This document shows positions 35,601-39,678 of a DNA stretch of 64,000 nucleotides, in pieces. The DNA is from Streptococcus mitis (GTDB taxonomy: Bacteria; Bacillota; Bacilli; Lactobacillales; Streptococcaceae), in contig NZ_JPFU01000013.1 of assembly GCF_000722695.1 (NCBI RefSeq), forward strand, positions 496,001 to 560,000, given 5' to 3'. Numbering within the stretch: the stretch's first letter is position 1; every line of letters starts with the position of its first letter. The notes under the pieces were generated by a model that saw only the letters and a list, made by a program, of their open reading frames with translations, was not told the origin of the DNA and ran no database searches. A program made the position numbers and the translations under genes.

Positions 35601-38600
35601 GCATACCCTCACTCCATGACATTTCAGGATTTGTTTGTTTAGAACGATAGAGAACATATGGCTGATTTGCAGTTAGATCAAGAGTAATCTTACCGTCTTT
35701 CACGGCAACTTCTTTTTCCTCAGTCTTACCTTGGTCAGTTAGTTTATAAAGGTAAATCTTGCCATTTGCCCAGTCGCTAGGAAGTGTCCAAGTTGTTGCA
35801 CCTGCTTCAGTATTGAAGTAGTACATTTTTTCCTTGTCACTAGCAAGTTTCTTACCATTTGCATCCCAGTTCCATGGAGTCAAGTAAGCTGAACCATCTT
35901 GGATAACACGTCCGTTGAGCGTTACTGTACGTTCACGGTATTGTGGACTGTGGACATCATTGGATTTACGAGTTACCACAACCTTGTTATTTGCAGCATC
36001 GACCAACTCGACTTTCATTTCTGGAGTCCATTTATAGGTACTACCATTATCAGTCATGGTTACTGATTTGCCATCTTCCCATTTGCTGACTGTGAAGTGT
36101 TGGAAGTACTTAGTCATGACGTCATGAGCAAACAAGTTTGTTACATAACCGTTATAATCACTACGTCCTTGCCATCCTTCGAAGTCCTTCATGCTATAAC
36201 CGCCTAGAAGTGGGTAGTCAGCTGCACCACCATAACTTCTGTAATCCCCAACCCAAGAATCTTTTTGGTGGTTACGGATAAAGCGAGTAATGGCACTGTT
36301 AATACCTTTATTTGTATAGCCACCGTAGGTCAAGTCAGCTGCCCAGTGTTGGAAGGTAGAGTCGTATTCACCACCATGACCCCACTCAATCGCAAAGCGC
36401 CAACCTTGTTTGTTGATTTCTTTAGCAAGAACGTGGGTAGCCCAGGCACCATTATCTCCTGATTGACCATTTCCCCAAACGTCCACATAGATAAAGTCGA
36501 GACCTTCACCAAGTTTGTTCTTCAACTCTTCCCAGCGAGCTAAGCGTCCATGCGCCAAGTCATAAGCAGCATCAATATTAACTCCTTGATCTAACCAGTT
36601 CCATCCATAGCTGTAACTACCATCTGGATTCTTACGAAGAATATCTTCATTAAAATATTTAGACTCAGGATAGGTTTCTGAAGCGTTGACGTGGATACCG
36701 AGGTGGGCACCATATTTCTTCGCTTTCTCAATCAAAGCCTTGAAGTCTTCAACACCACCAATACGTTTACCGATGTCTGCATAGTTCAAGTGTCCAGAGT
36801 CATGTCCTTCACTTCCGTATCCCTTAAGAAGTATACCTTGACCAAGACCATCTGTATGAAGGTTAATCTTCTTGATTCCATCCAAGGTCATGAGGAATGG
36901 GTTTTGCGCTTGTGAACCAAAGTTCATAGCGATACGGTAAGCTGTAATGTCTTTAACTTTTTCCCAACCTTGAGGGTTGTTCATGATGCTACGATAAGCA
37001 ATGGCTCCATCCTGCCAGTCTACTTTATTATCAGCATTGGCATCTTCTGTGATAACAACCTTGGCACTTGGAAGTTCCTTCGTATATTCTGGGAAGACAA
37101 TGCCCTTATAAGCTTTTTCCCATTGCCACTCGGAACTTTGGATTCCTACATAGTTTGTATTTCCAACAGTTTGTTTGAATGCTGTCAAACGAGTCCAGTC
37201 ATTCGAACCACCACCGTAGCTGTTTTGAGAATTGCTCCAAACACCTGCAGCAAGTTTATCCGTAGAAACAAATCCATACATATAGCCCTTAGCCAAGTCC
37301 TTCATTGGATTGGTTACAGCAATATGGTCATCTCCACTGACATGCGTGTTATTTGACATAGTTGCCCCATCAAACTTAGCCCCAGTTTGGTCGCTTGAAA
37401 CCGAAACAAGTGAATTTCCTAAGAAATTAATAGATGAGAGTAGCTTTCTTTCATCATCGATCTTTTGTCCTGGCGTAACTTGGTTATGGTTTACAATCTT
37501 AGTCACATCAAAGTGAAGTTGGTTATCCACTACTTGCAAACGAACAGTCATATCCGCATTGATCAGATTAGGCTCATCACGGAGTTTCATCTCATATTCA
37601 GCAGTCGTTGCATTGACCTTTTTATAGGTAACTTCAGGAGTCACAGCGTGCTTGTTGATCACAACTTTATTAATTGGTTGCACTTGTCCTGGGAGCTTGT
37701 TTCCATTTAGAACATATTCTTTAACACGTGGGAAGGCTTGGTCGATAACTGCTTTCAATACTGTAGATTGAATAGTGTCGTATTTTACATTGCTATCATC
37801 TACTGTATAGCCCTTTTCTTTTTTAGTGGATTCTTGATCTGTTTTAACTCCTTCTTGGTTGTCAGTTTTGACATTGACAATTGTTCTTTCACTACTATTA
37901 TAGGTTCCAGCTTTAAGAACGATTTTCTTCTCATCTTTTAGTTTGTTATTTACTGCAGATGGCAAGGTCACTGTGTCAAAAAGTTTCACATCATTATTAG
38001 TTGCATTGAGCTGTCCATCTGATTTGAGACTGATCGTCAAGTGGTTGGTTGAACCATTAACAGGAGCTGCAACACGATTACCTTGGTACCAAAGTCCACT
38101 TCCATTTGACTTATATTCCCAGAACCATCCACCTTGGTCATATCCTACAAAAACGTTATTATCAGTGTCTTTGAATTTCATGAAGACACCAAAGCGAGAC
38201 CTACCTGTTTCGGATTCTTCTTTAAAGGTCAAATCAACTGTAGCATTCCCATTAGCATCTACTGTCAAACCATCTTTTTCAAACAAGGCTGATTTTTTCC
38301 CATTGTCATTTTGAGCAGTTGAAGCTAGTTGGTTGTAACGAACTCCTTTTTCTTCACGGACAATTACTGTTCCCTGTTGTTTTTTCTTTTCAACTGTTTT
38401 CCATTCTGGAGTGACTTCTTTTGATTCACTCGGTTTAGTTTCAGCTGGCTTGTTTTCAGCAGGTTTATTTTCTGCTGGTTTGTTTTCTGCCGGCTTATTG
38501 TCAGCTGGTTTTTCTTCTTTTGGTTTATCCTCTTTTGGTTTGTCCTCTTTTGGTTTTTCTTCCTTGTTTTCCACTTGTTTATCGAGAGCATCTAGACCAG

Positions 38601-39678: not shown

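What the first reader, a model, noticed from the sequence alone, without database searches (positions are those of the whole stretch)
38600..39230. Intact V8-like serine protease domain fused to a GH101 mucin O-glycanase
Residues about 152-355 of the GH101 protein form a complete chymotrypsin-fold domain: H182, D239 and S310 in the right order and contexts, plus an IGIH-x-x-G segment like the one that contributes the Glu-binding His of S. aureus V8 protease. GH101 strips core-1 O-glycans from mucin-type proteins. A protease on the same wall-anchored chain could cut the backbone once it is bared, making a self-contained mucinase. I know of no characterised pneumococcal enzyme with this arrangement.
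Basis: partly seen in the sequence, partly recalled or inferred. Interest (0 to 1): 0.8.

Follow-up and report, generated by a model that had tools for sequence, protein, structure and literature searches.

The report
Protease domain on streptococcal mucin glycosidase
A surface enzyme of commensal mouth and throat streptococci that strips sugars from mucus proteins also carries an intact-looking protease domain, a pairing already noted once in print but with no assay that I found, and the pneumococcus has lost that protease piece.

Summary
Residues 139-355 of the 2328-aa GH101 protein (window 38614-39264, minus strand) are a trypsin-fold domain by sequence, with H182, D239 and S310 in place. 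It is not unique: 65 of 94 GH101 genes found in 284 Streptococcus genomes have it within 4 kb. The triad is intact in 120 of 120 aligned relatives, and the domain is under purifying selection (median pairwise dN/dS 0.047).

[quoted passage not shown] The nearest solved relative, the trypsin-like domain of the Gemella IgA1 protease, showed no activity and has a blocked S1 pocket. "Self-contained mucinase" is therefore unproven.

Added here: the module also sits on GH29 fucosidases, on GH33 sialidases (two copies) and on surface proteins with two copies and none of these partners. The pneumococcal enzyme lacks it through an in-frame deletion, and its GH101 allele nests among S. oralis alleles that keep the domain.

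Best reading: a tethered S1B-type zymogen protease acting on host glycoproteins beside the glycosidase (0.45).

The parts
32692..39678 (-). whole ORF: YSIRK signal, pro-segment, S1B-like protease domain, E/K/P-rich linker, GH101 enzyme, F5/8C module, LPDTG wall anchor (2328 aa)
   Evidence: ORF; Pfam; NF040533 endo_SpGH101, TIGR01168 YSIRK; LPDTG at residue 2296
39562..39678 (-). YSIRK-type signal peptide, residues 1-39 (end set by eye)
   Evidence: YSIRK_signal and TIGR01168 matches
39265..39561 (-). variable pro-segment, residues 40-138
   Evidence: 2 of 98 positions (residues 41-138) invariant in 65 rows; median dN/dS 0.153
38614..39264 (-). S1B-like (V8 / GhTrp-like) serine protease domain, residues 139-355, including the conserved N-terminal stretch LVPEDVAKTKNGELNYGATV (139-158)
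   Evidence: homology; triad in 120 of 120; abrupt conservation from L139
39133..39135 (-). codon of catalytic His182
38962..38964 (-). codon of catalytic Asp239
38749..38751 (-). codon of catalytic Ser310 (PGASGGG)
38704..38706 (-). codon of His325 (IGIHQNG), equivalent of the S1 histidine of glutamyl endopeptidases (equivalence recalled)
   Evidence: invariant in 34 of 34 rows of A1
38404..38613 (-). Glu/Lys/Pro-rich linker, residues 356-425, between protease domain and GH101
   Evidence: 14 Glu and 5 Asp in 70 residues
34561..38403 (-). GH101 endo-alpha-N-acetylgalactosaminidase domains, residues 426-1706 (catalytic family PF12905 at 889-1179)
33907..34266 (-). F5/8 type C carbohydrate-binding-like module, residues 1805-1924
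32779..32793 (-). LPDTG sortase motif, residues 2296-2300

Best explanation
The domain is an S1B-type serine protease carried as an N-terminal cassette on a wall-anchored O-glycanase. It is probably made as a zymogen: the variable segment 40-138 is cut off, freeing a new N-terminus at or near L139 that orders the S1 pocket, as the crystallographers proposed for the Gemella domain. The active protease then nicks host O-glycoproteins (mucins and mucin-like proteins) next to the place where GH101 removes core-1 glycans, probably after acidic residues. Shown here: homology, intact triad, purifying selection, the abrupt conserved N-terminus, fusion in frame to GH101, wall-anchor signals, recurrence on other glycoprotein-degrading enzymes. 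Inferred: activity, activation cut, P1 preference, substrate, cooperation with GH101.
For: Triad H/D/S and the oxyanion glycine G308 are invariant in 120 of 120 aligned domains from five architectures; the 190-position is Ser or Thr in 90 of these 120 rows. In the GH101 class, invariant columns cluster in active-site segments: 27 of 37 positions against 61 of 179 elsewhere in the domain, Fisher p 1.6e-5; 24 of 34 without the triad, p 1e-4 (segments chosen by me). Median dN/dS 0.047 over 302 pairs, like GH101_N 0.052 and far below the pro-segment 0.153. The module recurs on partners that act on glycosylated host proteins: GH101, GH29, GH33 and the M26 IgA1 protease. 12 of 15 fetched double-domain proteins have none of these partners yet keep a surface anchor or a choline-binding-like end, as expected of an enzyme in its own right. 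Conservation starts at L139 in 65 of 65 rows after a variable stretch, and the profile aligns end to end with V8 protease from chain residue 9. Six S. infantis-type rows carry a domain 93-95% identical to the window's on a GH101 only 55-57% identical in GH101_N and 48-49% in the F5/8C part, so the cassette is exchanged between backbones and kept.
Against: The nearest solved relative (GhTrp) showed no activity on chromogenic peptides or in PICS, has a loop in its S1 pocket, made no difference to IgA1 cleavage and did not bind the M26 part. 26 of 65 GH101-type domains and 4 of 4 M26 domains have Gly at the 190-position, so acidic P1 specificity is not general. 29 of 94 GH101 genes have no such domain nearby, so GH101 does not need it. 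Three of the 65 genomes with the fusion have a broken copy: a stop inside the domain (G124), a frame break after it (G132), a split gene at an assembly gap (G210). No structure could be predicted. No substrate or activation protease is known.
Confidence: 0.45

Rival explanations
1. Self-processing or surface-maturation domain: the protease acts mainly in cis or on neighbouring surface proteins, for example trimming its own pro-segment or the Glu-rich linker, and so controls release or exposure of the glycosidase (or of the M26 protease), not host mucin.
For: The linker right after the domain has 14 Glu and 5 Asp in 70 residues, and the same module sits between the N-terminal anchor region and the M26 domains in ZmpA (LPXTG-like match at 89-131, trypsin at 666-821, M26 from 855), where a cut before the domain would free the enzyme.
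Against: Nothing tested here shows cutting. E/K/P linkers are common in wall proteins in general (recalled). Recombinant GhTrp did not interact with its M26 partner. The double-domain proteins have none of the tested partners to release.
Confidence: 0.25
2. Proteolytically silent domain: the fold is kept for binding or spacing, and the triad is retained by history or structure.
For: GhTrp had no measurable activity and a malformed S1 pocket; its authors leave open loss of protease function. The -1 residue before the catalytic Ser is Ala in all 65 GH101-type rows and Met in the 4 M26 rows, where V8-like enzymes have Asn and trypsin Asp (recalled).
Against: Loss of activity should let the triad drift; it did not in 120 of 120 rows over five architectures, and invariant sites cluster at the active site.
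Confidence: 0.2
3. The domain matters little: it is carried along in the recombining N-terminal part of YSIRK proteins, and its loss in pneumococcus is neutral.
For: 29 of 94 GH101 genes do without it; the pneumococcal copy lost it and GH101 stayed; the N-terminal part is swapped between GH101 backbones.
Against: Purifying selection on the domain (median dN/dS 0.047) is as strong as on GH101_N (0.052).
Confidence: 0.1

Closest known systems
[quoted passage not shown] PMC11970125, PMC9637739)
   Same: Best match in the PDB (E 8.9e-36 single sequence); same triad, YQG...SGGGIF and (I/V/L)HQNG blocks; also N-terminal in a large streptococcal-type surface enzyme
   Different: M26 partner instead of GH101; Gly at the 190-position where the window has Ser305; loop 2 one residue shorter (alignment); inactive in published assays
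[quoted passage not shown] 2 legend)
   Same: The same fusion, stated in one legend sentence for commensal study strains
   Different: In the passages and the one section I read there is a domain drawing only; no survey, triad analysis or assay, and no mention of the GH29 or GH33 partners with this domain
Pneumococcal Eng / SpGH101 (PDB 3ecq and others)
   Same: Same GH101 modules; pre- and post-deletion flanks of the N-terminus nearly identical to S. oralis copies
   Different: 1767 aa; an in-frame deletion of about 265 residues (compared with S. oralis L074) removes the end of the pro-segment and the whole protease domain
S. aureus V8 protease and Bacillus glutamyl endopeptidases (MEROPS S1B, class name recalled and from PMC12211801)
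   Same: Profile alignment over nearly the whole length (V8 1qy6: profile 7-219 to chain 9-214, E 7.5e-14; 1p3c: 3e-9); S1 histidine conserved
   Different: Those are stand-alone secreted enzymes; here a domain inside a 2328-aa wall protein; Ser/Gly at the 190-position in the GH101 class and Ala before the catalytic Ser

Membership tests
S1B / glutamyl-endopeptidase-like serine protease | His-Asp-Ser triad in order with chymotrypsin-fold sequence blocks | tested here: met
   H182, D239, S310; invariant in 120 of 120 aligned rows; Pfam Trypsin_2 5.2e-14
S1B / glutamyl-endopeptidase-like serine protease | sequence closest to V8, exfoliative-toxin, Spl and GhTrp type structures | tested here: met
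   The four best PDB rows after GhTrp are of this type; same with profile A1 (A1 itself holds four M26 rows, which inflates the GhTrp score)
S1B / glutamyl-endopeptidase-like serine protease | Glu-type S1 pocket: His at 213-position plus Thr/Ser at 190-position (recalled) | tested here: inconclusive
   His325 invariant in 34 of 34 rows of A1. Position 305: window Ser; GH101 class Ser 39, Gly 26; GH29 Thr 22 of 22; double-domain second copy Thr 15 of 15, first copy Ser 14 of 14; M26 Gly 4 of 4
S1B / glutamyl-endopeptidase-like serine protease | fold with formed oxyanion hole and open S1 pocket | not testable with these tools
   structure prediction switched off
S1B / glutamyl-endopeptidase-like serine protease | peptidase activity | not testable with these tools
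   needs an assay; the closest solved relative was inactive
SpGH101 family (NCBIfam NF040533) | score above the curated cut-off and complete GH101 module set | tested here: met
   4114.5 bits against a cut-off of 2900; six GH101-specific Pfam modules. The model's positions about 122-375 match the trypsin part of other proteins, so the domain lies inside the model
M26-type trypsin-like (GhTrp) domain family | closest homology to GhTrp and N-terminal position in a YSIRK surface enzyme | tested here: met

The most novel reading that the evidence does not exclude
Commensal streptococci use one exchangeable S1B zymogen-protease cassette on several different surface enzymes that take host glycoproteins apart (GH101, GH29, GH33, M26) and on dedicated double-protease surface proteins, so that backbone cutting and deglycosylation happen on one chain. 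The pneumococcus deleted the cassette in frame from its GH101, so the enzymology and crystal structures of pneumococcal SpGH101 describe a protease-less form of what the tree reads as a two-enzyme protein.
Probability: 0.35. Interest if true: 0.7.

Novelty: new member of a known kind. Interest (0 to 1): 0.42.

Why it matters
If the domain is active, breakdown of mucin-type glycoproteins by commensal streptococci would involve sugar and backbone cutting tethered on one surface molecule. A published puzzle, what the orphan trypsin-like domain of M26 IgA1 proteases is for, would become testable on simpler partners: the recurrent feature is glycoprotein-degrading partners, not IgA1. The pneumococcal loss gives a natural comparison between the pathogen and its commensal relatives. 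If the domain is inactive, it is a striking case of a widely kept, triad-bearing but silent protease fold.

Tried and rejected
Rejected: that the fusion is unique to this window (65 of 94 GH101 genes) or undescribed. Rejected: that it is pneumococcal. Considered and rejected: kinship with the S. oralis mucin protease MdpS; that paper reports TsaD-like similarity. Considered: that the trypsin domain in the GH101-only genes had merely diverged; a family HMM found none in ORFs of 120 aa or more in the 20 fetched of 29 such loci; the other 9 rest on the search alone (E 1e-6). Tried without result: paper searches for the GH101 fusion by other words (the first capped at 20 of 3,262 papers) and for the repeat name SIALI-17. 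For the GH29 and GH33 fusions the searches showed no paper in the rows listed, but searches list only 20 of 220 and 20 of 231, so absence from print is not shown; one choline-binding protein with a trypsin-like domain (Cbp33) is in print. Not done: fold comparison, since it needs a model.

Rows dropped: for the 120-row alignment, the named duplicates L048-L071 of genomes already held, L045 (domain interrupted by a stop) and the partial first copy in L149; for the tree and the dN/dS, L036, L045, L046 and L060. dN/dS pairs are limited to dS 0.1-1.2 and are not independent.

Full report
OBSERVATION. The finding lies in the ORF 32692..39678 (-), 2328 aa. By Pfam it has a YSIRK signal, Trypsin_2 (residues 167-324, E 5.2e-14), Trypsin (147-335, 2e-6), then the GH101 module series from residue 426 (PF17995, PF18080, PF12905 at 889-1179, PF17451, PF21466, PF17974) and an F5/8C module; NCBIfam NF040533 endo_SpGH101 scores 4114.5 against a cut-off of 2900. 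An LPDTG motif is at residue 2296.

WHAT THE DOMAIN IS. [quoted passage not shown] 7uvk, 2.4e-34), then far behind exfoliative toxin A (1.3e-8) and, weaker, glutamyl endopeptidases including V8 (1wcz 1.8e-4, 1qy6 7.2e-4). With a 34-row profile (A1) the order is 9ect 1.4e-85, exfoliative toxin A 6.8e-14, V8 7.5e-14 over profile 7-219 to chain 9-214, Bacillus glutamyl endopeptidase 1p3c 3e-9; A1 contains four M26 domains, so the 9ect score is inflated.

PUBLISHED STATE. Of PMC11970125 I read parts 1 and 2 of 3; of PMC9637739 passages. They report that GhTrp has a trypsin-like fold, that no activity was found with chromogenic peptides or PICS, that loop 2 splits the S1 pocket, that activation by an N-terminal cut is proposed and loss of function not excluded; that the domain made no difference to IgA1 cleavage and did not bind the M26 part. 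In PMC12211801 (passages and section 12) the Fig. [quoted passage not shown] The fusion is therefore in print as a domain drawing. A protein hit 99% identical over the searched region is named in public sources 'Endo-alpha-N-acetylgalactosaminidase precursor [Streptococcus mitis]' and 'Serine protease', and the NCBIfam SpGH101 model covers the domain, since its positions about 122-375 match the trypsin part of other proteins.

DISTRIBUTION. In 284 genomes of the genus, 94 have GH101; in 65 of these 94 a GH101-type protease domain lies within 4 kb. Three of the 65 copies are broken (G124, G132, G210). The 36 named loci are S. mitis, S. oralis, S. infantis, S. pseudopneumoniae, S. shenyangsis, S. 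taonis and unnamed Streptococcus. In 395 genomes sampled from the order, 24 match profile A1 at 1e-20, all in 1 of 80 genera. In the large protein set, 679 hits passed 1e-5 and the 120 listed all carry GH101 and Trypsin_2.

OTHER PARTNERS. The same domain family sits on: ZmpA/M26 (4 fetched loci); GH29 fucosidases (22 fetched loci; in each a GH29 match on the same ORF); and proteins with two such domains (15 fetched), of which 3 carry a GH33 sialidase and 12 have no match to the GH101, GH29, GH33 or M26 queries (10 of the 12 with LPxTG ends, 2 with choline-binding-like ends). Full Pfam scans were run on five of these proteins only. The 120 rows listed of 2,992, sought with the double-domain sialidase, carry Trypsin_2 and sialidase domains.

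CONSERVATION. In an alignment of 120 rows (65 GH101 including the window, 22 GH29, 15 + 14 from double-domain proteins, 4 M26), H182, D239, S310 and G308 are invariant. In A1, H325 and Q326 of the IGIHQNG block are invariant in 34 of 34. The 190-equivalent position 305 varies: GH101 class Ser 39, Gly 26; GH29 Thr 22; second copy Thr 15; first copy Ser 14; M26 Gly 4; GhTrp Gly. Loop 2, which blocks S1 in GhTrp, is one residue longer in the window (GVSGKR against GA-ENR in the alignment; the match to the published loop-2 numbering is my own count). Within the GH101 class, 27 of 37 positions in active-site segments are invariant against 61 of 179 elsewhere in the domain (p 1.6e-5), and 2 of 98 in the pro-segment. 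Conservation begins at L139 (65 of 65) after a variable stretch. This resembles the free N-termini of mature V8-type enzymes (recalled) and fits, without proving, an activation cut. Median pairwise dN/dS: pro-segment 0.153 (371 pairs), protease domain 0.047 (302), GH101_N 0.052 (237), GH101 core 0.019 (542), F5/8C 0.062 (267), among 40 rows.

MODULE EXCHANGE AND PNEUMOCOCCAL LOSS. Six S. infantis-type rows have a protease domain 93-95% identical to the window's but GH101_N 55-57%, core 84-85% and F5/8C 48-49%: the N-terminal cassette sits on two different GH101 backbones. The genome G159 carries a 1767-aa GH101 without the domain that matches the crystallised enzyme 3ecq over residues 40-1567 (3463 bits; the alignment shown is almost letter for letter, cut by the tool; that 3ecq is pneumococcal is recalled). 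A search with its N-terminus gave 540 hits, 120 listed: the best 19 (1613-1791 aa, standing for 10,269 member sequences) lack Trypsin_2, and the 8 named among them are all S. pneumoniae; the other 101 all carry it, and the 8 named are S. mitis, S. infantis, S. pseudopneumoniae or Streptococcus sp.. Compared with S. oralis L074, about 265 residues are missing, in frame, at a short E-K repeat. In a 60-row GH101 tree (quick method, SH-aLRT only) the pneumococcal row falls inside a 5-row S. oralis-type clade (96) within larger clades of Trp-bearing rows (99, 99, 96, 95, 92, 100); presence/absence needs three changes. So the domain was lost on the pneumococcal allele. The earlier history (gain against loss at the base, and the S. 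infantis rows on a long branch) stays open. The same G159 genome keeps a Trp domain in its ZmpA (L034).

MECHANISM. I commit to a tethered S1B zymogen acting on host glycoproteins beside the glycosidase (0.45): homology, triad, selection and recurrence are shown; activation, specificity, substrate and cooperation are inferred. Rivals: self-processing (0.25), silent fold (0.2), near-neutral hitch-hiker (0.1). Strongest against: the inactive GhTrp, Gly at position 190 in 26 of 65, 29 of 94 GH101 genes without the domain, and its loss in pneumococcus.

VERDICT. Observation confirmed; interpretation partly supported; the fusion is already in print without an assay in what I read; the recurrence on GH29/GH33 and the pneumococcal deletion are additions for which I found no paper in limited searches.

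Noticed in passing
window 15624-16522 and 40047-40943: A 900-base direct repeat, 90.1% identical, holding two yaaA-like genes (15626..16354 and 40049..40777) flanks the 23.5-kb block of GH2, GH20/GH84 and GH101 surface glycosidases, which looks like an island or duplication joined at yaaA. A yaaA gene lies just upstream of GH101 in 7 of 41 searched loci, with a partial match in one more.
   Followed up: partly
window 24242..32536 and 16610..23746: Two further giant YSIRK/LPXTG glycosidases next to GH101: a 2764-aa protein with both GH20 and GH84-type (NAGidase) domains plus several F5/8C modules, and a 2378-aa BgaA-like GH2 beta-galactosidase.
   Followed up: no
window 4272..13712: 3146-aa YSIRK protein with 21 collagen-flanked surface repeats, collagen repeats and a G5 domain, beside an Mga-type regulator at 14084..15568.
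   Followed up: no
L031 2147-5857, L037 4337-10060, L047 3150-6836: Surface proteins with two protease domains in tandem, on LPXTG, choline-binding-like or GH33-sialidase backbones.
   Followed up: partly
L034 2688-9167 (genome G159): A genome whose GH101 is of the pneumococcal type has a ZmpA that carries the trypsin-like domain, whereas the papers describe the S. pneumoniae IgA1 protease they studied as lacking it: the trait may vary within the species.
   Followed up: no
L045 (G124), L046 (G132), L036 (G210): Broken copies of the fusion gene: a stop within the protease domain, a frame break after it, and a split gene at an assembly gap; intact copies exist in other genomes.
   Followed up: no
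L085, L086, L100-L102: A different GH101 group without the protease domain has about 940 residues of other sequence between signal and GH101_N.
   Followed up: no
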